A stretch of DNA of 64,000 nt, taken from Arthrobacter psychrochitiniphilus. GTDB taxonomy: Bacteria; Actinomycetota; Actinomycetes; Actinomycetales; Micrococcaceae. The DNA is taken from the NCBI RefSeq assembly GCF_003185915.1, contig NZ_QHLZ01000004.1, positions 1 through 64,000 on the forward strand, given 5' to 3'. The notes below the pieces were generated by a model that worked only from the letters and a program-made list of their open reading frames with translations, had not been told where the DNA came from and ran no database searches. The position numbers were made by a program, and so were the translations under genes. Positions within the stretch are counted from its first letter, which is position 1, and each line of letters begins with the position of its first letter. Shown one piece after another: positions 12,985-33,208 of this stretch.

Positions 12985-13179
12985 GCGCGGGTCTCCTGAC
13001 TGAAGTTGAGCGGTAATGTCATGCAATCTGCAGCTGCGTTAAATGCAGCTAGAATTACGTCAACAATACCGGCAGTTCACGGCCTAGGAACAATTTACCC
13101 AGCAACATCACAGGCAATGGACAGTCCGCACACAACCGAAGTGGTCGATTCCCTTCGACCACAATGTCAAGGAGCTTCT

Positions 13180-13434
13180 GTGCCTGAGTCAAAATCGCGT
13201 CGCCGCCCCACTAAAGGACCGGCCCAAACGCCTTCCAGCAAAACACAGCAGCCCAATGCCGTTTGGTTCGTCCCCGTCATGGTGACCTTAATGGTCCTGG
13301 GTCTGGTTTGGATCATCACCTACTACATCTCTGATGGTCGCTTCCCCATCCCCAACATTCACAACTGGAATATTGGCATTGGTTTTGGCATTGCCTTGGC
13401 CGGTTTCATGATGACAACTCGCTGGCGCAGCTAG
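13180..13434 (+). CDS. crgA: cell division protein CrgA
   Basis: An 84-residue protein with a basic N-terminus (SKSRRRPTKG) and two transmembrane helices (about 29-50 and 64-82) joined by a short loop containing NWNIGIG. CrgA is a septal membrane protein of actinobacteria that recruits FtsI and coordinates septum wall synthesis. The forward frame is open further upstream, but GTG at 13180 is preceded by AAGGAG and gives the usual CrgA length. Its place next to the pknB/pbpA cluster is conserved in mycobacteria (Rv0011c). Confidence 0.92.
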   Translation: MPESKSRRRPTKGPAQTPSSKTQQPNAVWFVPVMVTLMVLGLVWIITYYISDGRFPIPNIHNWNIGIGFGIALAGFMMTTRWRS

Positions 13435-13437
13435 TTC

Positions 13438-13728
13438 TCAATCTTTTGTAGTTTTCCTTGGGTCACTTTCAACGTAGTGGCCCTTGGGGTCCCCTACGGC
13501 ACGGCCCGGTACATCTCCGGCCGTGCCGTAGTCAGCTTCAACGAATCTCCCACGCTCTGCCTCGTCCTCCGTGCCTTCCGAGCCGGCCTTTCCGTAGTCA
13601 CCTTCAACGTAACGGCCCTCGGCGTCATCTGCATGGTGACCCTCCTCGGAACCGGCCTTACCGTAAGCACCCTGGACGTAGCGTCCGTGGCTGCCCTCTT
13701 GTGCTGTGCTGTCCTCTTGTGCTGTCAT
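13438..13728 (-). CDS. repeat protein with GRYVEGDYGKAG motifs
   Basis: A 96-residue, very hydrophilic, acidic protein made largely of four degenerate repeats: GRYVQGAYGKAG, GRYVEGDYGKAG, GRFVEADYGTAG and a terminal GHYVESD. Spacers are rich in Glu, Asp and Gly. There is no signal peptide or membrane segment. The ATG at 13728 is chosen because purine-rich GGAAGGCAGGG lies upstream; the frame stays open to 13782. It converges on crgA with three bases between stops. I do not recognise a characterised family. The aromatic and glycine-rich repeats suggest a disordered protein with binding motifs. Confidence 0.65.
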   Translation of the reverse strand: MTAQEDSTAQEGSHGRYVQGAYGKAGSEEGHHADDAEGRYVEGDYGKAGSEGTEDEAERGRFVEADYGTAGDVPGRAVGDPKGHYVESDPRKTTKD

Positions 13729-13782
13729 TTTTGCTGCCCTGCCTTCCAAATCACTAACGCTTGCGCACCGAATGGCGTGCAT

Positions 13783-14151
13783 AGTTGCGCTCTTGCTTCC
13801 ACTCTAGTCCGAGCTAGATTTTCTGGACAGGCCGCACGCAACTGGAGAGCCCATGCACAAGCAGTTGTCTCCTTAGGACCGGACTGCAGATGTGAGATCG
13901 CCGGTAAAAACCCCTCATGCACGGGAATCTCCCGGGTCTTCAATGCCTTCACCAATTAGGCGGATTATTCGTGCGGACTGTAAAGATGGCACCTGTGCTC
14001 TCCTGTGACTTAGTTGTGCCCCTGCAGGGAAAGTCGGCGGCAACACTGCTGGCAGTCACACCATTTGAACAGACCCACTCTCACCGGAGACCCAACCGGT
14101 GCTATCTTGGCCACTGCACACTATTTTTCACAGTGGACGCAGGGCTGTGCA
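13783..14151. other. intergenic region, no gene recognised
   Basis: This stretch lies between the repeat protein and the broken regulator. Short frames exist on both strands, but none has a recognisable domain, ribosome site or coding bias. It must contain the promoter of the repeat-protein gene (reverse strand); I could not fix its hexamers. Confidence 0.4.
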
Positions 14152-15074
14152 CTATGAGTAGTACGAGTCAGTCTGAGATCCGGATTCTTCGCCGTTTATG
14201 AACAAGGCCAGTTGCTCCCTCGATTGAATGTCCAGCTTGATGAAAGTCCTGTAAACGTGGCCTTCAAGAGTGCGCCGTGAGACCTGAAGCCGGGTAGCGA
14301 TGGAGTTGTTTGACTCACCCTGTGCCACAAATAGCGCAATTTGATGTTCCCTACGGGTCATTTTAGGTTTTTCAATCGAAGTGAAAACCGTTGACACTAA
14401 CCCTGGCAGCTGTTCACGCATGGCCACTACCTTGTTGGCGGTTCTCATGCTTTTGTGTACTTTTCCACTGTCATGGAACCTATTCAGTGCATGGGTTGCC
14501 AGCTCGACGGCGGTCAGGTCAAAGCCATATTTCTTCGCCACGGAACTGGCATGTTCTAGATCGGTGGGATCTTGGGACACCATAGCCCCTGACCATTCCA
14601 TGAAGAATTCCCGGCTGCCTGATTCCACCCCGGAGGCAATTTCTGCCAGGGCGGGAATCGAGGCTATGTCCCCAAAACGCACCAGCAGGGACAGAACCGT
14701 CAGCCCAATGCCGGCATAGCCGCGGTTAAGGCACTCCCTTTGCAGGTGGCGCAATCTGGCCAATCCCAATTTGTTCTGGCCCGTGATGAACTGTGTCACT
14801 GCTGCATAGGCAGATGCTTCAAGCTCATGGAATTTTCCGCTGCGCCGGTTCAGCGAAGCCAACTGTGAGAGTTGGGCCTGTGCGCTCACTAAATCTCCGC
14901 GCATGGCAAGGGAATAGGCCAGCTGTGACAAAGTGTTGGCGAAACTGACCAAGGATCATAGTCAGCAAGTACTCCAGCCTCCGAACGCAGCGCTGGTATG
15001 GCTTCCTCAAAGTGTCCACGCCGGCAGGCCATATCCGTGCAGTTTTGCTGGCCACCAGCGGGCAGACGAAGTGG
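14152..15074 (-). pseudogene. LuxR-family transcriptional regulator, frameshifted and truncated
   Basis: The 14152-14952 frame encodes 266 residues. It has a helical repeat-like region with C-terminal LuxR-type helix-turn-helix (about 200-255: TRREHQIALFVAQGESNNSI and VSRRTLEGHVYRTFIKLD). The natural upstream sequence (MACRRGHFEEAIPALRSEAG ending ADYDPW) lies in another frame between about 14950 and 15050. It joins the open frame through a single frameshift near 14950 and is itself interrupted by a stop further upstream. The N-terminal part of the usual large regulator is missing. A shortened protein starting at TTG 14952 cannot be excluded. Confidence 0.7.
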
Positions 15075-15105
15075 CCACTGGTGGCCAGAAACTCATGGCC
15101 ATTGG

Positions 15106-15399
15106 CTACGAAGCGCAAACACCTGAGTTCTTATTTGTGGTACGGCTTAACCGAATTACCGCCTGATCAGCCAAAGTAGAGAGCAATTGGCCACATCCCA
15201 CAACAAGGAATGCTGCAAGGAGTCCACACATGAAGCCAAACGTGCCCGAATCACGAACTGATTCAATGCTCGATGAAGATATCTCCGTGGTGAATTGAGC
15301 CCACAGTGTCGACCAGATAATCCAGCCGATTCCCATGCCGAGGCAACCTGCAACAAGTCTGGAACTGGCCCTGATCACACTTCTGCTGACTCTAGGCAT
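15106..15399 (-). CDS. small membrane protein, unknown function
   Basis: A 97-residue protein with two hydrophobic segments: about 11-32 (SSRLVAGCLGMGIGWIIWST) and about 52-74 (GTFGFMCGLLAAFLVVGCGQ), and a basic C-terminus. ATG at 15399 is preceded by GGAGG at good spacing; the open frame begins upstream at 15465. No family recognised. It follows the 39-residue membrane protein by about 60 bases on the same strand, so they may be co-transcribed. Confidence 0.6.
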   Translation of the reverse strand: MPRVSRSVIRASSRLVAGCLGMGIGWIIWSTLWAQFTTEISSSSIESVRDSGTFGFMCGLLAAFLVVGCGQLLSTLADQAVIRLSRTTNKNSGVCAS

Positions 15400-15461
15400 G
15401 GTTCCTCCGTAACTGTTGATCCAACATACCCGGGATAAACCTAGACGTGTACCCCTGAGCC

Positions 15462-15581
15462 TCACTTGCTCGGAAGTCCGGTCTTGGACGGGCCTAGGCC
15501 GAGCACCAGACGGATGATGCCGACTCCCGCGACCATCAGCACAATGGCGATGAGTGCGATGCGCCCGGCGCCGCTGTTCAT
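15462..15581 (-). CDS. 39-residue single-helix membrane protein
   Basis: The reverse strand encodes a tiny protein beginning MNSGAGRIALIAIVLMVAGV and continuing GIIRLVLGLG to a SKTGLPSK end. The single helix covers about residues 8-29, and the basic tail suggests the C-terminus stays in the cytoplasm. No clear ribosome site is visible. Support is coding quality, clean hydrophobic pattern and same-strand neighbour at 15106-15399. Function unknown. Confidence 0.5.
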   Translation of the reverse strand: MNSGAGRIALIAIVLMVAGVGIIRLVLGLGPSKTGLPSK

Positions 15582-15845
15582 GTTAGCTGCATTAGCCCTT
15601 GACCACTTCGCGCTCATCGGAGACTGCCATCAGATCACGTCTGTAGTCAGGGCCCTGTGTGCATCAGGACGCTTCGCCCAGTGATTCTGCAAGGTTCCCC
15701 TTCCGGGACGCACAAACAGCCCGTAGCCAGGAGGCCCCTTTCTTGCTGCCAACCACCGAGCCAACGGCTGGTGATATGAAACAGGGACAAGTCAGAAATA
15801 GCTTGGGAACCTACACAAGTGTAGGAACCCGGCGCCTCTGCGACA

Positions 15846-16189
15846 TTATCCCCAGACTTCTCCACACTGTGGATAACTTTTTCCCACAACCCACATACTT
15901 ATCCACCGACGTGGAAAACATCTTCGAACTATCCACAAGCCATCTTCGAAAGTGAGGTTATACCTAGTTGTTCACAAAGTTATCCACAGAAGTGGATAAC
16001 TTTGCGGCGGATTCGAGCTGAGATCATTTTAACCGCGTCAGAAAAGTAATCCACAGCTGTGGAATTACATGTGTGTAACTTATACCCAGTGTGCATAAAC
16101 CTGGGGATAAGTGCATATTCGACGAAGATAAAACTACTAGAACTACAGCTCTGTAAGTTATGCCCACGTGTGGACATCTATGTGGATAA
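15846..16189. promoter_or_regulatory. dense DnaA-box cluster away from oriC
   Basis: Three perfect TTATCCACA boxes lie at 15868-15876 (reverse), 15980-15988 (forward) and 16181-16189 (reverse). One-mismatch boxes lie at 15846-15854, 15899-15907, 15929-15937, 15991-15999 (reverse), 16047-16055 and 16102-16110 (reverse). This matches or exceeds the density at the dnaA locus 15 kb away. The surrounding 15582-16216 contains no gene. The region lies directly upstream of the flavin reductase gene. It may titrate DnaA, reload DnaA nucleotide, form an extra origin element or regulate the reductase gene. Confidence 0.8.
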
Positions 16190-16216
16190 CGTTGTAAAAC
16201 GTGCAAGCATGAAGCT

Positions 16217-16768
16217 ATGGAACTACCTGATCCCCTCGACATCCACAGAGTTTTCCCACAGCAACTTACACAAGATGCCATCGATGAGTACCGACGGCTC
16301 AGCGCAGAACAGGCAGGATCTGTGGCCATCATCAGCACTCGACTGCGCAACCGCGATTATGCCGCCACAGTGACCGCCTATCTGTCAGTGTCCTATGAGC
16401 CTCCGACATTGCTGGTCAGCCTCTACGCTGACTCACGGATTGCGCAGGCAGTTGCAGATGCCGGATCGTGGGCTTTGTCCTTGCTCACAGCGGAGCAGAA
16501 ATCGCAGGCGAACTGGCTTGCCAGCCCGGGTACACCAATCGAGGGGCTGTTAAACCAGATCGATTTTAGGCGCAGCCAGGTCACTGAAAATGCGATCATC
16601 GCAGGGGCCCTTGCCTACTTTGAGGTGGAAACCACTGCCATCCACGAGGCTGCAACTCATCTGTTGGTGGTGGGAAATGTTCTTTCGATGGGTGAAGATG
16701 CTCCCTGGAACAAGGAGGTTTCGCCTCTGCTTCACTATGGCGGGGACTACCGCCGGCTCAAACCTTAA
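16217..16768 (+). CDS. flavin reductase-like FMN-binding protein
   Basis: The 183-residue protein matches the flavin reductase/FMN-binding split-barrel family. It contains GSVAIISTR, VTAYLSVSYEPPTLLVSLY, an SWALSLLTAEQ segment and FEVETTAIHEAATHLLVVGNV. Such enzymes reduce FMN with NAD(P)H, often for a partner monooxygenase, but no monooxygenase gene is nearby. The ATG at 16217 has only a weak ribosome site. Its upstream DNA is the DnaA-box cluster, so its expression may respond to DnaA or replication state. Confidence 0.85.
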   Translation: MELPDPLDIHRVFPQQLTQDAIDEYRRLSAEQAGSVAIISTRLRNRDYAATVTAYLSVSYEPPTLLVSLYADSRIAQAVADAGSWALSLLTAEQKSQANWLASPGTPIEGLLNQIDFRRSQVTENAIIAGALAYFEVETTAIHEAATHLLVVGNVLSMGEDAPWNKEVSPLLHYGGDYRRLKP

Positions 16769-16837
16769 AGGTGATAAGGGCTGCTCAACGCAAGCTCAGT
16801 CCCTAACCGAAAGGTAAGCGGGGCGTTGCTGCAAACT

Positions 16838-17698
16838 TTAGCTGATGACAAAGGCAGGGAAGGTGGAGACCTTGTAAAGTGTGAGGCCAACGAGGATCAA
16901 CACCACCGCGGCGATTCCGCCCCACTGGATGAGGTTGCGCTTCTTGGCAGGGGCATAGGCCACCGCAACGGTGCACAAGGCGCCGGCGATCAGCCCACCT
17001 AGGTGTGCCTGCCAAGCAATATTCGGGATGAAGAATCCAATGGCTGCGTTAATCGCCAACAGCACAACGATCTGACGAAGGTCGCCACCGCGCTTCTTCT
17101 GAACGACGAAGAGAGCTCCGAAAAGACCGAAGACTGCCCCTGAGGCACCTACAACCACGGTGTCGATGGGGGAGAGTAAGAGCACGCCAACAGATCCCGC
17201 AAATGCACTGACCAGGTAGATGGCAAGGAAGCGAACGCGGCCAAAGGCCGGCTCCAGGGCGTTACCTAGAATCCACAAGGCATACATGTTGAAGGCGATG
17301 TGCATGATGTTCGTTGAGTGCAAGAAGGCGGAGGTCACCATGCGCCACGGTTCAGATTCAGTCAGGAACGGGGCGTAGGCAAAATTCTGGAAGATGAAGT
17401 CTTTGGGGATGGCCCAGTCAAGGGCGAACATTGCCACGCAAAGGACCATCATCGTGATGGTTACAACGGGCCGCCCGGCTCGGGCGACGCCTCCGAACAT
17501 GGTTTTGCGGGAGGGAACCGCCTTCGTAGCAGCCCTCACACAATCCACACACTGAATCCCCACAGCAGCACTGCGTTGGCAGTCCGGGCACGCTGGCCGG
17601 CCACACCGCTGACAGCTCACATAGGAAACCCTGTCAGGGTGCCGTGGGCAGACGGGAGCGCCAGTGGCGGATTCCGGGACCGGATATGCAGAACTCAT
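16838..17698 (-). CDS. rhomboid-family intramembrane serine protease
   Basis: A 286-residue protein. The N-terminus carries a cysteine/histidine zinc-ribbon or B-box-like module (CPRHPDRVSYVSCQRCGRPA, then CPDC and CVDC). A six-helix rhomboid core follows, with HIAFNMYALWILG, the catalytic serine in GASGAVFG (about 185) and the catalytic histidine in AHLGGLIAG (about 232). Rhomboids cut transmembrane helices of substrate proteins. The zinc-ribbon form is widespread in actinobacteria. ATG at 17698 is preferred over 17767 because it starts right before the zinc module, although an AGGA site is distant. Confidence 0.92.
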   Translation of the reverse strand: MSSAYPVPESATGAPVCPRHPDRVSYVSCQRCGRPACPDCQRSAAVGIQCVDCVRAATKAVPSRKTMFGGVARAGRPVVTITMMVLCVAMFALDWAIPKDFIFQNFAYAPFLTESEPWRMVTSAFLHSTNIMHIAFNMYALWILGNALEPAFGRVRFLAIYLVSAFAGSVGVLLLSPIDTVVVGASGAVFGLFGALFVVQKKRGGDLRQIVVLLAINAAIGFFIPNIAWQAHLGGLIAGALCTVAVAYAPAKKRNLIQWGGIAAVVLILVGLTLYKVSTFPAFVIS

Positions 17699-17730
17699 GG
17701 GAGGGATCCTAATTGAGGGTATATAAGGAA

Positions 17731-17775
17731 GGCTTTGGTTGCCGAGAACCAGAAAGGTTCCCGGCAACCAAAGCC
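17731..17775. terminator. strong hairpin between cyclophilin and rhomboid genes
   Basis: GGCTTTGGTTGCCG with GAACC pairs with GGTTC and CGGCAACCAAAGCC across an AGAAA loop, about 20 bp of stem with one mismatch. It lies just downstream of the cyclophilin gene (reverse strand) and before the rhomboid start. There is no long T-run, but it is well placed as an intrinsic terminator. Confidence 0.7.
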
Positions 17776-17793
17776 AGAAGGGTCAAGCGCTGA

Positions 17794-18336
17794 TTAGAGC
17801 TGTTCGACGGTGACGGAGTTGATGACAACATCCTCGCGCGGCTTGTCGCCTGCGCCCGTGGCAACAGCTTCAATCGCGTCAACTACGGCGCGTGAGGCCT
17901 GGTCCGTGACGTCACCGAAGATGGTGTGTTTACCCTGCAGCCAGCTGGTGTTGACCGTGGTGATGAAGAACTGTGAACCGTTAGTGCCACGGCCACCCTG
18001 GGTGCCAGCATTCGCCATGGCGAACTTGTAGGGATCGTTGAAGTTCAGATCCGGGTTGATCTCGTCATCGAACTGGTAGCCGGGGCCACCAACGCCACGG
18101 CCCAAGGGATCCCCACCCTGGATCATGAAGTCCTTGATAATGCGGTGGAAGATTGTCCCGTTGTACAGGGGCGCGTTGGTCTTCTCGCCGCTGCCCGGGT
18201 GGGTCCATTCAATAGTCCCGGTGGCCAGGCCAACGAAGTTTGCCACTGTCTTAGGAGCATGGTTTCCAAAGAGGTTTACCTCAATGTCGCCAAGGCTAGT
18301 GCTGATAGTTGCTTTTGCGGTTGGGATAGCAGTCAT
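17794..18336 (-). CDS. ppiA: peptidyl-prolyl cis-trans isomerase, cyclophilin type
   Basis: A 180-residue cyclophilin with family motifs NLFGNHAPKTVANFVGLA, FHRIIKDFMIQGGD, GGRGTNGSQFFIT and LQGKHTIFGDV. It catalyses proline isomerisation in protein folding and is cytoplasmic (no signal peptide). The frame is open to 18462, but ATG 18336 gives the normal family N-terminus (MTAIPTAKATISTSLGDIEV). Its position next to rhomboid near pknB is also conserved in actinobacteria (Rv0009/Rv0110-like order). Confidence 0.95.
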   Translation of the reverse strand: MTAIPTAKATISTSLGDIEVNLFGNHAPKTVANFVGLATGTIEWTHPGSGEKTNAPLYNGTIFHRIIKDFMIQGGDPLGRGVGGPGYQFDDEINPDLNFNDPYKFAMANAGTQGGRGTNGSQFFITTVNTSWLQGKHTIFGDVTDQASRAVVDAIEAVATGAGDKPREDVVINSVTVEQL

Positions 18337-18473
18337 ATTCATATTCTGCCACGTGTCCATGAGAATCTTCTGAGAGGACCTCGCATTCCGCGCCCGGCGA
18401 ACTGGCAAATGATAGCAACAGGGCTCCACTAGACGTAGGCTAAAAGATGGAACTGCTGACATCTGGAGGAAAC

Positions 18474-19481
18474 GTGAAGAAGGTCGACCGCTTTACCCAA
18501 GGTTTGGAAGATTCATTGAATAGCAGTGTGGATAATGCCCGGGAATGGGTAGCACCCCACGTTGAGAATGCTAAGGACTGGACAACACCTCGTGTTGAGG
18601 CAGCTCTCAGTTGGGCTGTTCCCCGGATTGAAAAAGGCATTGAGCATGCCTCGCCGATTGTTCAGGACGGATTACGCAAAGCCGCGCAATACACTGCCGA
18701 CGGCGTTGCAGCTGTGACCCCCAAGATTCAGGACGGCATTGAAAAGCTGGCACCCCGTATTTCCGATGCCGTTGATGAAGCTACCCCGCGCATTCATGAA
18801 GCTTTGGAGAAGACGGCTCCGGCCATCACCAGTGTCAAAGACAAAGTTGTGGATGACTTCCTTCCCCTCCTCGCAGAAAAGCTGGGCGAAGCAGCTCACG
18901 CCGTTGAACTAGCCCTTGAGAGTTCGAAGGTGTCGCCCCAAGTGGAGCTCGTTGCAGCGAAACTGACAGGGAACAAGAAAGCCGTGGCTAAAGCCGAGAA
19001 GGCTGCCGCTGAGGCCGCCAAGAAATTTGCTGCGGAAATGACAAAGGCTTCGAAGAAGAAAAAGCGCAGCGGGAGAGCCTGGATTGTAGTTGGCGTGGTT
19101 GTCGCGGCTACCGCTGCAGGCGTTGCCGCATGGAAGGCATCCAAGCCTGTGGCCGATCCCTGGAAGACACCGGAACCTGTTGCGCCGGCGCCTGCTGCTA
19201 CTTTGCCAACACCTGCGCCTGCACCGGCAGTAGTTCCTTCTCCCGTTCCCGCGGACGACGGCGCTGACACCAAGGTTGCCGAGCCCGCTGACACTGTGGT
19301 GCAGAAGGCGAAGGATGCGGTTAAGTCCGGGGCCGAAGAAGTTGCCGAGGCTGGCGCTTCAGTAAAGGACGATGTGGTTGATGCCGCTTCCGATGCCAAG
19401 GATGCGGCCGCGAAGCTGCTGGATGCAGCTTCCAGCGCCGTGGAGGACGCTTCGCCGAAGCCGAAGGATCCCAAGAAGTAG
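18474..19481 (+). CDS. amphipathic-repeat membrane protein, unknown function
   Basis: A 335-residue protein. The N-terminal half (about 1-130) consists of repeated 11-13 residue amphipathic units with a Pro at each turn (VAPHVENAKDW, TTPRVEAALSW, AVPRIEKGIEH, VTPKIQDGIEKLAPRI). A Lys/Ala-rich coiled region, one helix (about 201-221) and an Ala/Pro linker follow. The C-terminus is again amphipathic (AKDAVKSGAEEV, DAASDAKDAA), like LEA or apolipoprotein sequences. GTG at 18474 has GGAGG nine bases upstream; an ATG at 18447 is less well placed. It may coat a membrane or interact with nucleoid or wall; this is inference. Confidence 0.75.
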   Translation: MKKVDRFTQGLEDSLNSSVDNAREWVAPHVENAKDWTTPRVEAALSWAVPRIEKGIEHASPIVQDGLRKAAQYTADGVAAVTPKIQDGIEKLAPRISDAVDEATPRIHEALEKTAPAITSVKDKVVDDFLPLLAEKLGEAAHAVELALESSKVSPQVELVAAKLTGNKKAVAKAEKAAAEAAKKFAAEMTKASKKKKRSGRAWIVVGVVVAATAAGVAAWKASKPVADPWKTPEPVAPAPAATLPTPAPAPAVVPSPVPADDGADTKVAEPADTVVQKAKDAVKSGAEEVAEAGASVKDDVVDAASDAKDAAAKLLDAASSAVEDASPKPKDPKK

Positions 19482-19503
19482 GTTTTATTGCAGTTTGTTT
19501 CAC

Positions 19504-19543
19504 GGAGAGGCTGGGAGTTTTACTCCCGGCCTCTCCTCTTTTT
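19504..19543 (+). terminator. rho-independent terminator
   Basis: GGAGAGGCTGGGAG and its complement CTCCCGGCCTCTCC form a stem with a TTTTA loop, followed by TCTTTTTT. It serves the amphipathic-repeat gene. It reaches the stop codon of the convergent DMT permease gene. Confidence 0.9.
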
Positions 19544-20418
19544 TAGGCCGTTGTTTTCTTTAGGCCGCTGCGGCCCTGCCGCAGAATCACCGCAGCCAGC
19601 CCTGCCAATATTAAGGCCAGGCCCGCATACGTTCCCGGTGGTAGCTGCTCGTCAAGGAAGAAACCGGCTAAAAGTGCCGCCCCTGGTATTTCTACGAGGA
19701 TCATCATGGAGACCACAAGGGGAGAAATGGTGGCCAGCAAATAGTTGAAGATGGTATGGCCAAATATCTGGGCTGCCACTGTGACGCCAATAATGCCCCA
19801 CCACGCCTCCGGCGGGATATTCAAAAGTGGTTGGCGAAACACCAGGCACAACGCCAGCAGGATGAGCGAACACAGGCCGTAGCAAAGGCTCGAGTAGGCC
19901 CCTGTGGAGAGGGTCTTGCGGGCCTTTGAACCGGCCAGGGTGTAGATGGCGGCAAGGATGCCTCCTGCCACCGCCAAGACGTCGCCTATGAGCGCCTGCG
20001 GCGAAACCCCTATGTCGAACCCTGTGATAACCGCTACGCCCAGCAGCGCAGTGCCCAGTCCCAGCAGTACCGGCTTCGGTGGCTTCATTCCGCGGATCCA
20101 TTGAAAGAGCGCAATCCACGCCGCCTGCAAGCAGACTAGGGCCGTTGCGCCCGCCACGCTTGTCAACTTCACTGCGGTGATAAAACAGGCAAAGTGGAAG
20201 GCTAGTGCTGTTGCCGCAATAACCGTGTATTTCAATTCCGCCCGGGTCAGGGATTTAAATAATCCCGGATTCTTGATCACTGTGGGCGTGCCCAATACCA
20301 GGGCGCCAAAAACATTGCGCCACAAGGCGATTGTCAGGGCGGGGGCCATAGTGGCGGCCATGATGGGTCCGGAGGCTGAAACGCCCAAAATGCCCACAAA
20401 GGCCAAAATAATTATCAC
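19543..20418 (-). CDS. DMT/EamA-family permease
   Basis: A 291-residue protein with about ten transmembrane helices in two halves, as in the EamA/RhaT drug and metabolite transporter family. Recognisable features are the ALWRNVFGALVLG loop early in the first half, GDVLAVAGGILAAIYTL in the middle, and AAQIFGHTIFNYLLATISP with SMMILVEIPGAALL in the second half. Substrate cannot be told from sequence. The GTG start at 20418 is the first possible, as an in-frame stop lies two codons upstream. Confidence 0.88.
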   Translation of the reverse strand: MIIILAFVGILGVSASGPIMAATMAPALTIALWRNVFGALVLGTPTVIKNPGLFKSLTRAELKYTVIAATALAFHFACFITAVKLTSVAGATALVCLQAAWIALFQWIRGMKPPKPVLLGLGTALLGVAVITGFDIGVSPQALIGDVLAVAGGILAAIYTLAGSKARKTLSTGAYSSLCYGLCSLILLALCLVFRQPLLNIPPEAWWGIIGVTVAAQIFGHTIFNYLLATISPLVVSMMILVEIPGAALLAGFFLDEQLPPGTYAGLALILAGLAAVILRQGRSGLKKTTA

Positions 20419-20460
20419 TGTTCAAGCCTAGGGCAAGGGGACAATGCCGTTGTGCTGATA

Positions 20461-20498
20461 AAAAAACAACCCCGGTCTGATGACCGGGGTTGTTTCTC
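20461..20498 (-). terminator. terminator after tRNA-Ala
   Basis: AACAACCCCGGTC and GACCGGGGTTGTT pair around a TGAT loop, with an A-run (T-run on the reverse strand) next to it. It lies immediately downstream of tRNA-Ala. Confidence 0.88.
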
Positions 20499-20499
20499 A

Positions 20500-20575
20500 T
20501 GGTGGAGGCACGGGGACTCGAACCCCGAACCCCCTGCTTGCAAAGCAGGTGCGCTACCAATTGCGCCATGCCCCC
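20500..20575 (-). tRNA. tRNA-Ala (anticodon TGC)
   Basis: Reverse-strand cloverleaf: acceptor GGGGGCA, D-arm GGCGCAATTGGTAGCGC, anticodon stem/loop CCTGC TTTGCAA GCAGG with TGC, T-arm GGGGTTCGAGTCCCC. CCA is encoded at the 3' end. Paired with tRNA-Ile about 200 bases upstream, the usual arrangement next to gyrA in actinobacteria. Confidence 0.96.
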
Positions 20576-20770
20576 ATGAGGATAATTCAGTATATCTGAA
20601 ACAGAACCAAAAGATTCACACTAACGAATCAGTTGCCTTGCTCCAGGTTGTCTTCACAACTTTGGATTCCCGCCACTTCCTGTTCAAAAATACTGCCGCA
20701 GTCAGAGCTGTGATCAAAATCAGCAACTTCTTCATAATGCACCATCCTTTACAAGAACCGTAGGGTTCCG

Positions 20771-20844
20771 TGGGCGTACCTGGACTTGAACCAGGGACCT
20801 CTTCGTTATCAGCGAAGCGCTCTAACCGCCTGAGCTATACGCCC
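20771..20844 (-). tRNA. tRNA-Ile (anticodon GAT)
   Basis: Reverse-strand cloverleaf: acceptor GGGCGTA, D-arm AGCTCAGGCGGTTAGAGCG, anticodon stem/loop TTCGC TGATAAC GAAGA with GAT, T-arm CCTGGTTCAAGTCCAGG. CCA is not encoded. Confidence 0.96.
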
Positions 20845-20899
20845 TACTTGACCCTCACCGGGCCGAGACAAAACTTTACCGCACACAATCCCAAATTCC

Positions 20900-20950
20900 A
20901 AAATCGGCGGTTCCTGCGGGTCTGCAGAACCCGCCGATTTTGATCTTTTA
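20900..20950 (-). terminator. hairpin after the DUF3566 gene
   Basis: AAAATCGGCGG and CCGCCGATTTT pair, with an inner TTC/GAA and CTGCGGG loop region. It lies between the gyrA-operon end and tRNA-Ile. The A/T flanks let it work on either strand. Confidence 0.8.
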
Positions 20951-20987
20951 ACGCCTTTTTTCGCGATAATCCGCGGTTTTTGACTGA

Positions 20988-21539
20988 TTAGTCATCAGTC
21001 AAGGTGACACCGATTCCGCCCACTAGAGTGGCCGAGATGTTGTACAAAACCGCAGAAAGTACGGAAAGTGTGGTCAAGAGCACAACGTTAACAACTGCAA
21101 CTATGGTTGAAAAGGATGCCACTTGCCCCAACGAGATGATTGACAGGAGATCGAACGGGACCCCGCCCTCCTTGCCCTGAATCTCATTGACGAAGTCGTT
21201 TACAGTGCCGAACAGGCCCATGGTGTCCAGCACTGACCAGAGCGCAATGGCTGCAACTACGGTCACAATACCGAGGGCAACAGAGAGCAGGAACGCCATC
21301 TTCAGGACGGACCAGGGATCAATTTTGCTGACCAGAAGACGGGCGCGGCGTGCTTTTGCCTTGGGTGCTGGCTTGACCAGCGACGGGGGTGACTTCGGCG
21401 CAGGCGTCTTGGTTACAGGCCGCTTCGCACCAACGGCTCCAGCAGTCGCTGGGGCGCTTGTGGGGCGCTGGGCGGGGCGGGCAGGTGCACCTACCCTTGG
21501 GGCGGACCCTGGCCGCGGAATCGGGTTATTGGTGCTCAA
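20988..21539 (-). CDS. DUF3566 membrane protein
   Basis: A 183-residue protein with a Pro/Ala/Lys-rich disordered N-terminus (about 1-65) and the DUF3566 domain. It has two helices (about 79-102 and 144-170) with an intervening NDFVNEIQG loop. A DUF3566 gene next to gyrA is conserved across actinobacteria (Rv0007). The mycobacterial relative has been linked to cell division/wall. It overlaps the gyrA stop by four bases and probably shares its transcript. Confidence 0.9.
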
Positions 21540-24190
21540 TCTGTGCCTCCAGTTGTTCCGTCATGACCCGTTAACGGTACTTCATCATTTTGTTGCTTTC
21601 CCTCTAAAGAGCCATTAATCGCGGTCTCAGGGGTTTCAGAGGCCTCAATTTCCGCGGCTTCTTCATCTTCTTCAAGGCCTCGTTCGCTGTTGCGAGCAAC
21701 CTCAATGATCTTGTCATTCTTATCCGGCTTGGCGAAGATGACACCCATGGTGTCGCGTCCCTTGGCGGGTACTTCCGAGACGTTGGAACGTACCACCTTG
21801 CCGCCGCCCATGACCACCAAAACCTCGTCATCTTCTTGAACAATCAGTGCTCCGACCAGGTCTCCGCGATCCTCCACCAGCTTGGCAACCTTAATGCCCA
21901 GACCGCCTCGTCCCTGCAGACGGTATTCCTCAACAGCTGTTCGCTTCGCATAGCCGCCTTCTGTGACGATAAACACAAAGGAATCATCAGTGACCACATT
22001 GGCGGCAAGAAGTTCATCAAAGTCACGGAACTTCATGCCCGTAACACCAGATGTTGCCCGGCCCATGGGCCGCAGCGCCTCATTTGTGGCAGTAAAGCGG
22101 ATGGATTGACCCTTGCGGGAGACCAACAGCAGATCGTCGGTGTCGGAGACCAGCTGCGCGGAGACAAGTTCGTCACCGTCACGCAGGTTGATGGCAATGA
22201 CACCGGCCGAACGGTTGGTGTCGTAATCCTCCAGTGAAGTCTTCTTGACCAGACCGTTCTTGGTTGCCAGAACCAGGTAGGGAGACTGCTGGTAGTCCTT
22301 GAGCTCCATGACTTGGGCGATCTTCTCATCGGGCTGGAAAGCCATCAAGTTGGCTACATGCTGTCCCTTGGCATCACGTCCCGCCTCGGCCAGCTCATAA
22401 GCCTTTGCACGGTAGACGCGGCCCAGGTTGGTGAAAAACAGCAGCCAATGGTGGGTGGTTGTCACAAAGAAATGCTCCACGACGTCATCCCCGCGCAGCT
22501 GCGCGCCCTTGACGCCCTTGCCGCCACGGTGCTGTGTGCGGTAGTTGTCGCTACGGGTGCGCTTGACGTAACCGCCACGGGTAATGGTGACCACCATTTC
22601 CTCTTCAGGAATGAGATCTTCCATGCTCATGTTGGGGTCGTAACCCATCATGATTTCTGTGCGGCGGTCATCCCCAAAGCGAGCGGTGATCTCCGCCAGC
22701 TCTTCGCTGACAATGCCGCGCTGAACCTCGGGCGAGGCCAGAATACGGTTATATTCGGTGATCTGTTGGGTCAAGACATTGCTGCGATCTTGAATCTTCT
22801 GATGTTCCAAGGCAGCCAGACGCCTTAGCTGCATGTCAAGGATGGCCTTGGACTGGATTTCATCGATGTCCAGCAGGGCCATCAGGCCGTCGCGGGCTTC
22901 CTCAGTAGTTGATGATGCTCTGATCAAGGCAATGACGGCGTCGAGGGCGTCCAGCGCCTTCAGCAAGCCTCGCTGGATGTGTTGCTCCGCTTCATCTTTA
23001 CGGAGTCGGAACATGGTACGGCGGACAATGACATCCATCTGGTGGGTAACCCAGTGACGGATGAAGGCGTCCAACGGCAGGGTACGGGGCACGCCGTCAA
23101 CAATGGCCAACATGTTGGCACTGAAGTTTTCCTGCAGCTGTGTGTGCTTGTACAGGTTGTTCAGGACTACCTTGGCCACGGCATCACGCTTGAGGACAAC
23201 AACCAGGCGCTGACCTGTACGGCCAGATGTCTCATCACGGAGATCGGCGATCCCGGAGATCTTGCCGTCCTTGACAAGATCGGCAATCTTGATTGCTAGG
23301 TTGTCAGGGTTAGCTTGGTAAGGCAGCTCGGTGACCACCAGGCAGGTGCGGCCTTGGATTTCCTCAACGTTGACCACGGCACGCATTGTGATGGAGCCAC
23401 GGCCTGTACGGTAGGCATCTTCAATACCCTTGCGGCCCAAAATTTGTGCACCGGTGGGGAAATCGGGTCCCTTAATGCGCTGAATTAGAGCTTCGAGGAG
23501 TTCTTCTCGTCCCACTGTCGGGTTGGCCAGGTACCACTGGACACCCTCGGCAACTTCACGCAGGTTGTGTGGGGGAATGTTGGTGGCCATACCGACGGCG
23601 ATACCTGAGGATCCGTTGACCAGGAGGTTGGGGAAACGTGCCGGCAGGATGGTTGGTTCCTGATTCTTGCCGTCGTAGTTGTCCTGGAAATCGACAGTTT
23701 CCTCATCGATATCGCGGACCATTTCCATGGCCAGCGGGGCCATTTTAGTCTCCGTGTAACGAGGTGCGGCAGCACCATCGTTTCCAGGGGAACCAAAGTT
23801 ACCCTGGCCCAGAGCCAACGGGTAACGCATGGTCCAGTCCTGGATCAGGCGAACCAGAGCATCATAAATGGCTGAGTCACCGTGGGGGTGGTACTGGCCC
23901 ATCACTTCGCCAACCACGCGGGCGCACTTGTTGAAAGAGCGCTCGGGGCGGTATCCGCCGTCGAACATGGCGTAGAGGACACGGCGGTGAACAGGCTTGA
24001 GCCCGTCCCTGACATCGGGGAGAGCACGGCCCACAATGACGGCCATGGCATAGTCCAGGTAAGAACGCTTCATCTCCTCTTGGAGATCAATTCGTTCTAC
24101 TTTGTCATGCATCAAGCTTCCCTCGATGACCTCAGTAGTGCTGTCATCTACTGCGGGTTCTTGAGGATTCTGGGGTGTTTCTTCACTCAT
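21536..24190 (-). CDS. gyrA: DNA gyrase subunit A
   Basis: An 884-residue protein. It contains the breakage-reunion domain with catalytic tyrosine in AAPRYTETK, the quinolone-interacting region [14 protein letters not shown] (a serine at the resistance position), and the C-terminal beta-pinwheel with repeats such as [21 protein letters not shown], the gyrase box. An acidic tail ends it. With GyrB it introduces negative supercoils. ATG 24190 follows 69 bases after gyrB. Confidence 0.98.
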
Positions 24191-24259
24191 AATTTTTATA
24201 TTCCATTCCCAATATATGTCTGGTTCGAACTATTTCTAGAGGGCCATGCTCGGGCTGTT

Positions 24260-26467
<2,208 letters not shown>

Positions 26468-26679
26468 TCAACGAATGCTAAAAGCTACCACAGCGCCGCG
26501 GAGAGACGGTTGTAGTCTAATTCTACCTTGCACCACGGCTATATAACGCCTCAACGTGCCCTAAAACGCGAGAAAAGCGCCTTAGGACGCAATTGTTGAG
26601 CCTTCTTTAAGGAGATGTACGGCTAATGGGGTTTCAATCGCCCTACAGCGCCTTGCACGCTCCCGCCAAGAAAGCAACA

Positions 26680-27270
26680 TTATCCGTAAGTGTCCCTGGG
26701 TCCACGGCCCTTCACGGTGCGGTAACCCTTTCGCCAACTCGGGGCAGTCGGGCCCAGAACCATAATCTTTGTCACCACGCCGTGTCCCAACTCGGCATCA
26801 AACTTTGCCAACAGGGATAGGGAGAGAAGCCGTAGCTGGGTTGCCCAACTGGTGGAATCACATCTGACATGCAAGGTGGTGGCTTCAAAGCTCTCCGGAC
26901 GGCAATGAGCGGCAATTTCCGGACCAACAAGATCATCCCACTGAGCCATGACGGAGCCAACGGCTAAAGGAGAGCTCCACCCTCTGTCAGAAACCAGCCT
27001 GCTAACAACATTTCCAAGCCCCTGGGGATCCCTTCCGCCACCATACTTTGCATCGAGAAACGGTTTCCTTTTACTTCTGGGGGTTGTTTTTTCACCAAGA
27101 CGCCCTCGCGAAATTCGCAGTTCACCGCGGCTTTTTGCGATGGCACGCATCCGGTTCAGGGCTGCCTGGGCCGCATCCACTTCGGTGTCATGATCAGATT
27201 TAGCCGCTGCCATACTACTTATTTTGCCTGTGAGGTCCCTACCCGAATCTGCCACAGACTCCTCAGTCAT
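26680..27270 (-). CDS. dciA: DciA (DUF721), helicase-loading factor
   Basis: A 196-residue protein. The N-terminus is basic and unordered, with RSKRKPFLDAKYGGGRDPQGLG; the DUF721/DciA domain follows (about 85-175), with WDDLVGPEIAAHCRPESF and LHVRCDSTSWATQLRLLS. DciA loads the replicative helicase in bacteria lacking DnaC/DnaI. It overlaps recF by eight bases. Conserved gene order recF-dciA-gyrB supports the call. Confidence 0.92.
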   Translation of the reverse strand: MTEESVADSGRDLTGKISSMAAAKSDHDTEVDAAQAALNRMRAIAKSRGELRISRGRLGEKTTPRSKRKPFLDAKYGGGRDPQGLGNVVSRLVSDRGWSSPLAVGSVMAQWDDLVGPEIAAHCRPESFEATTLHVRCDSTSWATQLRLLSLSLLAKFDAELGHGVVTKIMVLGPTAPSWRKGYRTVKGRGPRDTYG

Positions 27271-28525
27271 GGTTCATCACGCCGCCGGGAATCACCTGGA
27301 TGGTTGATCCTGACAATTCCTCGGGAATATCCGCTCCCACCGCGGCCGTGACCAGAACTTGTTCGGCTGCCCCTACCATCGAGGCAAGCTTGCGCCGTCG
27401 TTGTGCATCCAGTTCAGCGAAAACATCGTCAAGAATCAGGATTGGCTGATTCCCCGCCACATGTTTGTCCTCATCCAACACGTGAAAAGAGGCGAGCCGC
27501 AGAGCCAAGGCAATGGACCACGATTCTCCATGGGAGGCATAGCTGCGGGCCGGTGCATTACCCAAAAGAAGATCCAACTCATCACGATGGGGCCCCACAA
27601 GGGACATTCCACGTTCAAGTTCGCGGGTCCTCGATGCCGTCAATACGGTTCTGTAGCGTTGCGCCAATTCCTCCACAGGGCATAGGGATAAGTCTTCGCC
27701 GTCAAGAACCTCTGGCAGCACACCTCCGGTTGGTTCCCCGAATGCACTGTAGGTGGCGTCGTCGTGCTCTTCTTGCGGGGGCGATTCCGGCGGCCCGGAT
27801 ATGGTGATCTGGTCAAGACTGCTGCGGTAAAGTGCCCGCAAAATTTTGGAACCGTCAGTCAATTCTGCGTAAGCCTGTGCCAGGTGGGGGCGCAAACGGT
27901 TGAGCAGATCGAGCCGGGCAAGGAGCAATCCCGCAGCGGCCATAGCCATGTGCTCGTCCCACACATCCAGCGTTGCAAGATGAGACTCGGAAACTCCGGA
28001 ACGAGAAAAATGTTGAGAACGCGCTGATTTTAACAACGCGTTGCGCTGCTTGAGGACCCTGTCATAATCGCTGCGGGTACCTGCATGTTTTGGTAACAGA
28101 ACTACTAAAAGATCGTCAAGAAACCGGCGCCGGTTACCAGGATCACCCTTGACCAGGGCCAGATCCTCCGGTGCAAAAAGCACTGTGCGGCAAATACCAA
28201 GAATATCCCGGGCCCGCACCGGATTGGCCCGATTGATCCGGGCACGGTTGGCTCGCGTCGCGTTGATTTCAACTTCAACCATGACTTTTTGTTCGGCCCG
28301 CACCAACTGGGCCCGGATGAGCGCCCGGTCAGTACCAAAGCGTAAAAGGGGCGCATCCTGGCTAACGCGGTGGGATGAGAGCGTGGCCAAATATCCGATC
28401 GATTCCACCAGATTGGTTTTACCCAATCCGTTGGAACCTACAAGGACAGTGACTCCGGGTGTCAACGCCAGATCCACCTGTGCGTAACTGCGGAAATCCG
28501 TCAGGGAAAGATGCTCAAGGTACAT
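27263..28525 (-). CDS. recF: DNA replication and repair protein RecF
   Basis: A 420-residue SMC-like ATPase: Walker A GSNGLGKTNLVES, signature region LVGPHRDELDL, Walker B PILILDDVFAELD. RecF binds gapped DNA and helps RecO/RecR load RecA. A YLEHLSLTDFRSY N-terminus is typical. It is part of the dnaN-gnd-recF-dciA-gyrB run on the reverse strand. Confidence 0.97.
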   Translation of the reverse strand: MYLEHLSLTDFRSYAQVDLALTPGVTVLVGSNGLGKTNLVESIGYLATLSSHRVSQDAPLLRFGTDRALIRAQLVRAEQKVMVEVEINATRANRARINRANPVRARDILGICRTVLFAPEDLALVKGDPGNRRRFLDDLLVVLLPKHAGTRSDYDRVLKQRNALLKSARSQHFSRSGVSESHLATLDVWDEHMAMAAAGLLLARLDLLNRLRPHLAQAYAELTDGSKILRALYRSSLDQITISGPPESPPQEEHDDATYSAFGEPTGGVLPEVLDGEDLSLCPVEELAQRYRTVLTASRTRELERGMSLVGPHRDELDLLLGNAPARSYASHGESWSIALALRLASFHVLDEDKHVAGNQPILILDDVFAELDAQRRRKLASMVGAAEQVLVTAAVGADIPEELSGSTIQVIPGGVMNHD

Positions 28526-28536
28526 AGAAAGTAGTT

Positions 28537-29433
28537 TTATTCACTGCTGGGACTGGCTGGTTTTGTCGCATGCCCACCAAATTGGTGACGCAGAGCAGAA
28601 ACCATTTTCATGGCTGGAGAATTATCCTCGCGAGAGGAGAACCTGGCGAAGAGAGCTGCCGTGATGGCGGGAGCTGGTACGGCGTTGGCAATGGCTTCCT
28701 CTACGGTCCACCGGCCTTCGCCAGAATCTTCTACATAATCATCAATGGACTCCAGCCCCGGATCCTCATCCAGCGCTTTGACCATCAAATCCAGCAGCCA
28801 GGAACGTACTACGGTGCCTTTTTGCCAAGCCCGGAATGTTCCTGGCAGGTCCTGAATAATATCCTTCTTAGCGAGGAGCTCGTAACCCTCAGCGTAGGAC
28901 TGCATCAGTCCGTATTCGATGCCGTTGTGGACCATTTTTGCGTAATGGCCGGCTCCAATGCCACCAACGTGGACAAAACTGTCGGCCCTTTCCCCCTCAG
29001 GACGGAGTGCGTCAAACACGGGTAGGGCTCGGCTTACATCTTCCGACGCGCCGCCAGCCATCAGCCCATAACCATTGCTCAGACCCCAAACTCCTCCGGA
29101 AACACCAACATCGATGAAGGAAATATCCTTGCCGCGCAACAATTCACCGTGTTTTTGATCTTCCGTGAATCGTGAGTTCCCGCCGTCAACCACAAGGTCT
29201 CCTGGTTCGAGAAGTCCTGAAAGATCTGTGATCACTGATTCTGTAACGGCACCGGAAGGAACCATGACCCAAATCAGGCGAGGAGCCGGAACTGCTGCCA
29301 CGAGTTCAGTCAAAGTAGTGACATCACTGACCTCGGGGTTTTGGTCAAATCCGGTGACTTCGATCTGCGCTGCACGCAAACGGGCCCGCATGTTGAAGCC
29401 CATTTTTCCAAGTCCAACAAGTCCAATATGCAT
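28537..29433 (-). CDS. gnd: 6-phosphogluconate dehydrogenase, decarboxylating (short type)
   Basis: A 298-residue protein of the GndA/YqeC-type short family. It has a Rossmann fold GLVGLGKMGFNM, the DGGNSRF motif, GVSGGVWGLSNGYGLMAGG and the KMVHNGIEYGLMQSYAEG active-site helix. It oxidises 6-phosphogluconate to ribulose 5-phosphate in the pentose phosphate pathway. A gnd gene between dnaN and recF is a hallmark of actinobacterial origins. Confidence 0.95.
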   Translation of the reverse strand: MHIGLVGLGKMGFNMRARLRAAQIEVTGFDQNPEVSDVTTLTELVAAVPAPRLIWVMVPSGAVTESVITDLSGLLEPGDLVVDGGNSRFTEDQKHGELLRGKDISFIDVGVSGGVWGLSNGYGLMAGGASEDVSRALPVFDALRPEGERADSFVHVGGIGAGHYAKMVHNGIEYGLMQSYAEGYELLAKKDIIQDLPGTFRAWQKGTVVRSWLLDLMVKALDEDPGLESIDDYVEDSGEGRWTVEEAIANAVPAPAITAALFARFSSREDNSPAMKMVSALRHQFGGHATKPASPSSE

Positions 29434-29484
29434 GATATTTACTCTCTTCCGTGGGAATGGGCTAGAACGGCGGCAAAATCGAAA

Positions 29485-30832: not shown

Positions 30833-31029
30833 TGTGGATACTGTGGATAAGTGCCTTTGAGCACGTGATTTCGCAGAAGTTGCCTGTGCACAGGTTGTGA
30901 GGCTGTCCCGTTTTGGGGTGTGGGGAACGGTGGAGAACTTTTTGAGTGCTTTTAATGATCCACAGGCAACCCGGTAGTTATCCGCAGGTTGGGGAGGTTG
31001 TGCCTGAGTAATCCACAGGCTTATCCACA
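30833..31029. promoter_or_regulatory. oriC: oriC region: dnaA-dnaN intergenic DnaA boxes
   Basis: Perfect TTATCCACA boxes occur at 30842-30850 (reverse) and 31021-31029. One-mismatch boxes are at 30833-30841 (reverse), 30956-30964, 30978-30986 and 31009-31017. The whole intergenic stretch 30610-31066 holds no gene and also carries A/T-rich patches (AATTTCTCAGAATTTTT). In actinobacteria the origin lies between dnaA and dnaN, so this is the best oriC candidate. It also includes the dnaN promoter region. Confidence 0.85.
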
Positions 31030-32503: not shown

Positions 32504-32630
32504 TGACCGTTCCATCCTTACTGCCGACTCAAGAGCCGAAAATTTCGCAATTTACACACACCGTGTACGTGACTTCAGTTACACACATAAAACCAAATTT
32601 TTTTATGAGCGCAGACCCACTCAAACTGAG

Positions 32631-32802
32631 TAATCCACAGAGTTATACACATCGGTGGATAACTTGCCACTGGCCTAGCCTAGAGGATGGATGAGCCAGA
32701 AGATAGCGAGAGAAAGTGCTTGTGGATAAATGTCACAGCAGCGCCCTCCTGCGCACCTCATCCACAGAAGTTGTCCACTTAGTTATGCACAGCTGTGGAT
32801 GA
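32631..32802. promoter_or_regulatory. DnaA-box cluster upstream of dnaA
   Basis: One perfect box lies at 32721-32729 (reverse). One-mismatch boxes lie at 32631-32639, 32643-32651, 32654-32662 (reverse), 32758-32766, 32783-32791 and 32794-32802 (reverse). The cluster lies between dnaA and rpmH and probably mediates dnaA autoregulation and part of origin function. An A/T-rich tract (32595-32606) lies between it and dnaA. The stretch 32516-33070 holds no gene. Confidence 0.8.
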
Positions 32803-33070: not shown

Positions 33071-33208
33071 GTGAGCAAGCGGACTTTTCAGCCGAACAAC
33101 CGCCGTCGTGCCAAGAAGCACGGCTTCCGCCTACGCATGCGCACCCGCGCCGGCCGCGCCATTTTGGCAGCACGCCGCACCAAGGGTCGCGTAGAGCTGT
33201 CGGCCTAA
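33071..33208 (+). CDS. rpmH: 50S ribosomal protein L34
   Basis: A 45-residue basic protein starting [20 protein letters not shown] and containing [15 protein letters not shown], the complete L34 signature. GTG start. It belongs to the large subunit and opens the rpmH-rnpA-yidD-yidC-jag-rsmG run. Confidence 0.98.

What the first reader, a model, noticed from the sequence alone, without database searches (positions are those of the whole stretch)
15846..16189. A second dense DnaA-box cluster 15 kb from dnaA
Three perfect TTATCCACA boxes and about six one-mismatch boxes lie in 344 bases, with A/T-rich spacers and no gene. The density equals or exceeds that at the dnaA locus. It lies directly upstream of a flavin reductase gene, which has no obvious link to replication. 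It could be a DnaA titration site (like datA), a DnaA-reactivation site (like DARS), a relocated origin part, or a DnaA-controlled promoter tying redox metabolism to initiation. I know no description of such a site next to this reductase.
Basis: partly seen in the sequence, partly recalled or inferred. Interest (0 to 1): 0.78.

Follow-up and report, generated by a model that had tools for sequence, protein, structure and literature searches.

The report
Conserved DnaA-binding site beside crgA
A dense cluster of recognition sites for the replication starter DnaA, about 15 kb from the origin, turns out to be an old actinobacterial element whose mycobacterial counterpart is already known to bind DnaA, and it is joined to a second DNA motif that also sits in front of a cell-division regulator gene, so it probably tunes when replication starts rather than controlling the reductase gene next to it.

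Summary
The flavin reductase is incidental: across the family the cluster sits near the rhomboid 3' end, on the side where crgA usually lies (at least 4 boxes in 90 of 110 loci, and in 80 of 100 loci without the reductase). crgA and rhomboid converge on it in 104 of 111 loci, so a promoter role is unlikely in most lineages. A GC-rich version lies 3' of crgA in other orders. The mycobacterial counterpart (Rv0010c-Rv0011c) is bound by DnaA in vitro and, in M. smegmatis, in vivo (PMC7738170); its authors saw no correspondence in other species. New here: wide conservation, expansion to an oriC-like cluster, and a partner dyad (AATNACANNNNTGTNA) beside the boxes that also precedes whiB in 30 of 30 loci, mostly without DnaA boxes. 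Best reading: a DnaA reservoir or control site modulated by a second, unidentified regulator. DnaA binding in this organism, reservoir versus reactivation, and the dyad's protein are unproven; a Streptomyces paper of 2006 that may cover part of this is not held.

The parts
15846..16189 (.). DnaA-box cluster: 11 boxes within one mismatch, 3 exact; several inverted pairs with starts 10-11 bp apart
   Evidence: box columns 78 of 99 invariant in six genomes of the genus
15980..15999 (.). strongest inverted pair, TTATCCACA-2 bp-AGTGGATAA
   Evidence: nearly unchanged in the 10 aligned sequences
16063..16080 (.). dyad P, AATTACATGTGTGTAACT, form AATNACANNNNTGTNA
   Evidence: 17 of 18 columns invariant in six genomes of the genus; core enriched in these intervals
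16063..16098 (.). composite module: dyad followed by boxes TTATACCCA and (inverted) TTATGCACA
   Evidence: same layout in named actinobacteria
16141..16177 (.). second, degenerate copy of the module
   Evidence: sequence; conserved in the 10-sequence alignment
16217..16768 (+). flavin reductase gene, an incidental neighbour
   Evidence: PF01613; beside the cluster in 10 of 110 family loci
16838..17767 (-). rhomboid gene, the positional anchor in the family
   Evidence: PF01694; found in 120 of 120 family genomes
13114..13434 (+). crgA, the positional anchor across the class; here 2.4 kb from the cluster with other ORFs between
   Evidence: PF06781; found in 75 of 79 class genomes; distance
30833..31029 (.). 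dnaA-dnaN intergenic boxes (oriC part), for comparison
   Evidence: genes
32631..32802 (.). boxes between dnaA and the rpmH-like ORF (oriC part), including two inverted pairs of the same type
   Evidence: rpmH-like ORF 33071-33208

Best explanation
The cluster is the member, in this Arthrobacter-like genome, of an old actinobacterial DnaA-binding control site that lies on the 3' side of crgA, 13-16 kb from dnaA in the 11 family genomes measured. DnaA loads onto the boxes and the site acts on the pool or activity of DnaA, most likely as an origin-linked reservoir that restrains initiation once the region has been duplicated, rather than as a promoter switch. A second, unidentified protein binds the adjacent dyad, which also lies in front of whiB, and so lets the septation programme modulate DnaA here. 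Shown here: boxes, conservation, location, convergent setting, the dyad, and the dyad at whiB. Shown by others in mycobacteria: DnaA binding at the orthologous place, and a cell-length effect of variants there. Inferred: DnaA binding in this organism, reservoir rather than reactivation, and everything about the dyad-binding protein.
For: Enrichment far beyond chance. Family-wide position: at least 3 boxes in 97 and at least 4 in 90 of 110 loci near the rhomboid 3' end; in 73 of 80 loci of 8 kb or more the densest stretch is there, 12.6% expected. Boxes conserved against spacers: 78 of 99 columns versus 94 of 238. Class level: 54 box-like sites in 19.9 kb 3' of crgA versus 11 in 50.0 kb on the other side, 30 loci. 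Convergent neighbours in 104 of 111 loci. Dyad core 138 hits in 142.6 kb of these intervals versus 6 in 1242 kb outside; dyad upstream of whiB in 30 of 30. DnaA binds the mycobacterial counterpart in vitro and in M. smegmatis in vivo; expression of neither flanking gene changes in dnaA mutants; site variants lengthen cells as dnaA variants do (PMC7738170).
Against: No DnaA-binding data for this organism. 13 of 110 family loci fail the test: some have 1-2 boxes, in six the densest stretch lies elsewhere. 11 of 30 class loci have fewer than two box-like sites within 700 bp of crgA, this genome among them because other ORFs lie between. crgA and rhomboid are more than 1.6 kb apart in 33 of the 104 convergent loci, so promoters of other genes are possible there; here the reductase start adjoins the cluster, and in mycobacteria the site is upstream of Rv0010c. 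Titration against reactivation is not resolved by any result. Related genomes are not independent.
Confidence: 0.6

Rival explanations
1. DnaA-reactivating site (DARS-like): the ordered box pairs promote nucleotide exchange on DnaA and so stimulate initiation, with the dyad protein timing it.
For: Ordered inverted pairs and a second protein's site beside the boxes; the authors of PMC7738170 name reactivation as one possibility (passage).
Against: No test here separates it from titration. The box number varies widely between loci, which suits a reservoir better than a fixed machine (inference).
Confidence: 0.2
2. The dyad is the working part: a transcription regulator's site, with the DnaA boxes secondary or serving a local promoter (the reductase here, Rv0010c in mycobacteria).
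For: The dyad is the most conserved part (17 of 18 columns). In M. tuberculosis recurrent variants concentrate in a palindrome that I identify with the dyad, and HigA2 binds there in vitro and Rv0010c rises in a higA2 mutant (PMC11205783 passages).
Against: DnaA binds the site in vitro and in vivo in mycobacteria and neither flanking gene changes in dnaA mutants. Box columns are conserved too. The interval is convergent in 104 of 111 loci.
Confidence: 0.12
3. A second part of the origin, or a second origin.
For: Box number and inverted pairs like those at dnaA; 42% G+C; overall GC skew of the + strand is negative left of the cluster and positive right of it in 10 of 11 genomes.
Against: Skew at four-fold sites follows the strand of the genes, so the raw switch is not evidence for an origin. 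It lies 14.9 kb from the 3' end of dnaA. oriC and Rv0010c-Rv0011c are separate DnaA regions in mycobacteria. A DNA-unwinding element was not tested.
Confidence: 0.05
4. DnaA-controlled promoter of the flavin reductase.
For: The last box is 27 bp from the start codon.
Against: The reductase is there in 10 of 110 family loci; 80 of the 100 others keep at least 4 boxes.
Confidence: 0.03

Closest known systems
DnaA interaction site Rv0010c-Rv0011c of Mycobacterium tuberculosis and its M. smegmatis homolog (Hicks et al. 2020, PMC7738170; abstract, passages, sections 9 and 10 seen)
   Same: Same side of crgA (Rv0011c = crgA is recalled); DnaA-box-like sites; a palindrome that by its 65 bp distance to the next start (L198) is the dyad described here.
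   Different: Mycobacteria have few boxes (2-4 within one mismatch near the module in the Mycobacterium-labelled loci); here there are 11. The mycobacterial site lies before Rv0010c, the family site usually between converging genes. The paper reads the palindrome as two DnaA-like sequences; I read it as another protein's site.
Streptomyces DnaA-box clusters H69, H24 and D78 (Smulczyk-Krawczyszyn et al. 2006; recalled, not held; reference line seen)
   Same: Non-oriC clusters near the origin that restrain initiation (recalled). H69 may be the crgA locus (recalled cosmid names only).
   Different: Identity with this locus is unverified. The dyad is not part of what I recall of that work.
datA and DARS of Escherichia coli (abstracts in search listings; otherwise recalled)
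   Same: Non-origin box clusters that pair DnaA sites with another protein's site.
   Different: No sequence or positional homology shown; the second motif is not known to be IHF or Fis; no activity measured.

Membership tests
crgA-linked DnaA site (type: Rv0010c-Rv0011c) | Lies on the 3' side of crgA | tested here: met
   In the window 2.4 kb away with ORFs between; same side in family, order and class loci
crgA-linked DnaA site (type: Rv0010c-Rv0011c) | DnaA-box-like sites | tested here: met
crgA-linked DnaA site (type: Rv0010c-Rv0011c) | Palindrome abutting the boxes | tested here: met
   identity with the paper's palindrome inferred from the 65 bp distance in L198 and the HigA2 motif
crgA-linked DnaA site (type: Rv0010c-Rv0011c) | Bound by DnaA | not testable with these tools
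   shown for mycobacteria only
datA / DARS | IHF or Fis sites and effect on the DnaA nucleotide state | not tested
   no scan for IHF or Fis sites was made; activity needs the bench
Streptomyces D78-type titration cluster | High-affinity DnaA binding and effect of copy number on initiation | not testable with these tools
   recalled; paper not held
oriC | Adjacent to dnaA | tested here: not met
   14.9 kb from the dnaA 3' end
oriC | Replication-strand skew switch | tested here: inconclusive
DnaA-controlled reductase promoter | Cluster and reductase occur together | tested here: not met
MtrA site (for the dyad) | Direct repeat of GTnAC | tested here: not met
   the dyad is an inverted repeat; motif from passages
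BldM group I site (for the dyad) | 16 bp palindrome TCACcCgnncGgGTGA | tested here: not met
   half-site spacing differs by one base each side
WhiA site (for the dyad) | Asymmetric GACAC, bound by a monomer | tested here: inconclusive
   GACAC halves in some families and nrdR a shared target, but TTACAC dominates in this family and the site is symmetric

The most novel reading that the evidence does not exclude
The element is a class-wide junction between replication initiation and septation: the regulator that binds in front of whiB also binds the dyad beside crgA and, by cooperating or competing with DnaA on the abutting boxes, sets how much DnaA is free for oriC. The recurrent clinical variants reported in mycobacteria would then act mainly through this second protein's site rather than through the DnaA boxes.
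Probability: 0.3. Interest if true: 0.9.

Novelty: new variant of a known kind. Interest (0 to 1): 0.72.

Why it matters
How actinobacteria keep initiation to once per cycle is, as far as I recall, largely open: I know of no established counterpart of Hda or of IHF-datA control there. A DnaA site beside crgA, found in mycobacteria as an unexplained binding place, gains weight from its presence in other orders, and gains safe models (Arthrobacter, Streptomyces) in which to test it. The dyad shared with whiB points to cell division and gives a route to the missing regulator.

Tried and rejected
Redox promoter: rejected by gene-content comparison. Origin relocation: skew test inconclusive because codon usage follows gene strand. 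Known RNA element: Rfam at gathering thresholds found only tRNAs in the window. MtrA and BldM as dyad proteins: motif geometry differs. WhiA: undecided. HigA2: binds the M. tuberculosis site in vitro; I did not test whether it occurs in the families that carry the dyad.

Dyad sites elsewhere: 20 neighbouring proteins were run against Pfam and two more WhiB ones. Found: WhiB (own genome and four genomes of family f6), NrdR (own genome, G009, G039), CofD and F420 ligase, LysM/SLT and Rpf-like transglycosylases, LytR_C, UDG, LuxS, 5-FTHF ligase, weak AMP-binding and kinase hits; four had no match. Only whiB was tested further, so I claim no wider regulon. The pattern misses the window's own dyad by one base; the window's site is covered.

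dnaB cluster survey: at least 2 boxes in 10 of 30 loci, including all 9 in which dnaB was in reach; in the other 21 dnaB lay outside the fetched DNA, so this is no survey of the family. Pfam found nothing for the ORF after the module in L295, so I did not confirm it as Rv0010c. In nine mycobacterial-type loci the distance from dyad to the next start varies, and start codons are uncertain.

Of the 110 family loci 30 are 2.5-3.9 kb long, so the densest-stretch test uses only the 80 of 8 kb or more. Left out: L149, L150, L213; some genomes still appear twice there (G135, G120, G009). The ten-sequence alignment covers two genera only; elsewhere the comparison rests on boxes and dyad.

Full report
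What is there. The interval 15846-16189 holds three exact TTATCCACA boxes and eight with one mismatch. In 1000 first-order Markov sequences made from the window, no 344 bp stretch held more than 4 such boxes or more than 1 exact box; the observed numbers are 11 and 3. Several boxes form inverted pairs whose starts are 10-11 bp apart (15858/15868, 15899/15910, 15980/15991, 16080/16090, 16158/16169, some members with two mismatches). The same arrangement occurs upstream of dnaA (32643/32654, 32783/32794). Genome-wide there are 43 exact boxes in 4.05 Mb, and 687 within one mismatch against 362 for the reversed pattern.

Where it lies. dnaA is at 31067-32515 (for its domains) and the cluster ends 14.9 kb from the dnaA 3' end. 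Neighbours are a flavin reductase, a rhomboid gene, a cyclophilin, and crgA 2.4 kb to the left with other ORFs between. In six genomes of the genus aligned at the cluster, 78 of 99 box columns and 17 of 18 dyad columns are invariant, against 94 of 238 other columns (58 of 185 once two-mismatch boxes are also set aside).

The reductase is incidental. I anchored on the rhomboid gene, found in 120 of 120 family genomes, and examined 110 loci. 97 of 110 have at least 3 boxes, and 90 at least 4, in their densest 400 bp stretch and within 1.3 kb of the rhomboid 3' end. In the 80 loci of at least 8 kb the densest stretch falls in that target in 73, where 12.6% of positions would be expected. Only 10 of 110 have the reductase between rhomboid and cluster; of the 100 without it, 80 have at least 4 boxes. 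Thirteen loci fail: L050, L051, L060, L073, L084, L118 and L135 have only 1-2 boxes in their densest stretch, and in L071, L078, L081, L085, L087 and L089 it lies 1.3-4.5 kb from rhomboid on the same side. In some of these the element may have been separated from rhomboid by inserted genes, as in the named record L334, where the module lies 4.4 kb from rhomboid.

Beyond the family. In several other families of the order the crgA-rhomboid interval carries GC-rich spellings of the box (sequences printed). At class level, in 30 loci, 54 box-like sites (TNNTSCACA) lie in 19.9 kb on the 3' side of crgA, counted to 700 bp, and 11 in the 50.0 kb of crgA and its other side (counts summed by me from the rows). 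19 of 30 loci have two or more on the 3' side. Eleven have fewer, among them this genome and G009, where other ORFs push the cluster beyond 700 bp. Four of the 30 loci are from the same order. crgA and rhomboid converge on the element in 104 of 111 loci that have both; in 71 of these the genes lie within 1.6 kb of each other, in 33 further apart. So in many lineages neither anchor gene has its promoter there. 75 of the 80 are labelled actinobacterial, from Arthrobacter, Glutamicibacter, Kocuria and Nesterenkonia to Mycobacterium, Gordonia, Tomitella and Amycolatopsis. 73 of 80 have a crgA, rhomboid or ppiA match in the fetched DNA. Of the five others by label, four (two archaea, a Shewanella, a Bacteroidales) have none of these genes and 0-1 boxes, as expected by chance, and one, labelled Sporosarcina, carries Arthrobacter-like genes.

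A second motif. Next to the boxes is a dyad, AATNACANNNNTGTNA. Its core (T.ACA....TGT.A) occurs 138 times in 142.6 kb of these intervals and 6 times in 1242 kb outside, in 117 of 185 loci (related genomes and a few duplicates included). In this genome the composite module matches in full only at 16063-16093; the next best place has three mismatches. The dyad pattern occurs in 34 of 69 genomes of the order, with one hit in all for the reversed control. Of 34 such sites whose surroundings I read, 26 have no DnaA box within 200 bp; at least some of the other 8 are the crgA element itself. Testing the most recurrent neighbour, whiB, gave the dyad within 350 bp upstream in 30 of 30 fetched family loci (41 genomes searched), no reversed-control hit, and a DnaA box within one mismatch in 3 of the 30 upstream regions. 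The dyad therefore looks like the operator of a conserved regulator and not like a DnaA box as such. MtrA (direct repeats) and BldM group I (other spacing) do not fit their published motifs; WhiA fits in part (passages of PMC6265350, PMC5650626, PMC13189361, PMC4125116 and PMC3781837).

What is known. Hicks et al. 2020 (PMC7738170; abstract, passages, sections 9 and 10 read; [quoted passage not shown] smegmatis. That Rv0011c is crgA is recalled; it agrees with the Mycobacterium loci, where the module lies on the 3' side of a crgA match where one is found. The paper says that the site has no obvious correspondence in other species, that recurrent clinical variants fall, with one exception, in a palindrome 65 bp upstream of the Rv0010c start, that reconstructed variants lengthen cells and lower isoniazid susceptibility, that neither flanking gene changes in dnaA mutants, and that titration or reactivation are possible. 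The HigA2 paper (PMC11205783, passages) reports binding to an ATCAC(N)4-7GTGAT site at Rv0010c and calls it the same as the DnaA site. I infer that their palindrome is this dyad; the M. tuberculosis letters were not examined. The present genome also has box clusters at dnaA-dnaN, between dnaA and an rpmH-like ORF, and between rplI and dnaB, so four of the five mycobacterial sites have a counterpart here. None of my ten literature searches listed a paper whose title or abstract start describes the element outside mycobacteria. The library lacks most subscription papers, and the Streptomyces cluster paper of 2006, which may include it, is not held.

How it probably works. The setting between converging genes, the large and variable number of boxes, and the steady distance to dnaA (13.2-15.6 kb in 11 genomes) fit a site that acts on DnaA itself: duplicated soon after initiation, it would bind DnaA and lower what is free for oriC. 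Reactivation of DnaA is the main rival. The dyad implies a second protein, and its presence at whiB suggests a link to septation (the role of whiB in septation is recalled). These functional steps are inference. An origin role is not excluded: overall skew is negative left of the cluster and positive between it and dnaA in 10 of 11 genomes (G053 is the reverse), but four-fold-site skew follows gene strand in both places.

Noticed in passing
L260:2001-2234 (own genome C22, about 479501-479734): Five DnaA boxes within one mismatch (two exact) lie between rplI and dnaB; all 9 family loci with dnaB in reach have at least 2 boxes there. DnaA also binds upstream of dnaB in mycobacteria.
   Followed up: partly
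L257:2617-2634 (own genome C11:469616) and L427-L456: The dyad lies upstream of whiB in 30 of 30 family loci, an apparent operator of an unidentified conserved regulator.
   Followed up: partly
L258:2458-2475 (own genome C34:111957): A dyad lies just upstream of nrdR; nrdR is a footprinted WhiA target in Streptomyces venezuelae.
   Followed up: no
L275: A record labelled Sporosarcina encodes a flavin reductase (81%), rhomboid (77%) and cyclophilin (87%) like those of the window, with the cluster: probably contamination or mislabelling.
   Followed up: no
window 14001-30000: Cumulative GC skew is a flat minimum between the cluster and dnaA rather than a sharp turn at dnaA; strand-dependent codon usage explains at least part.
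   Followed up: partly
window 13438-13782: An ORF next to crgA encodes imperfect repeats of a GRYVEGDYGKAGSE-like unit and has no Pfam match.
   Followed up: no
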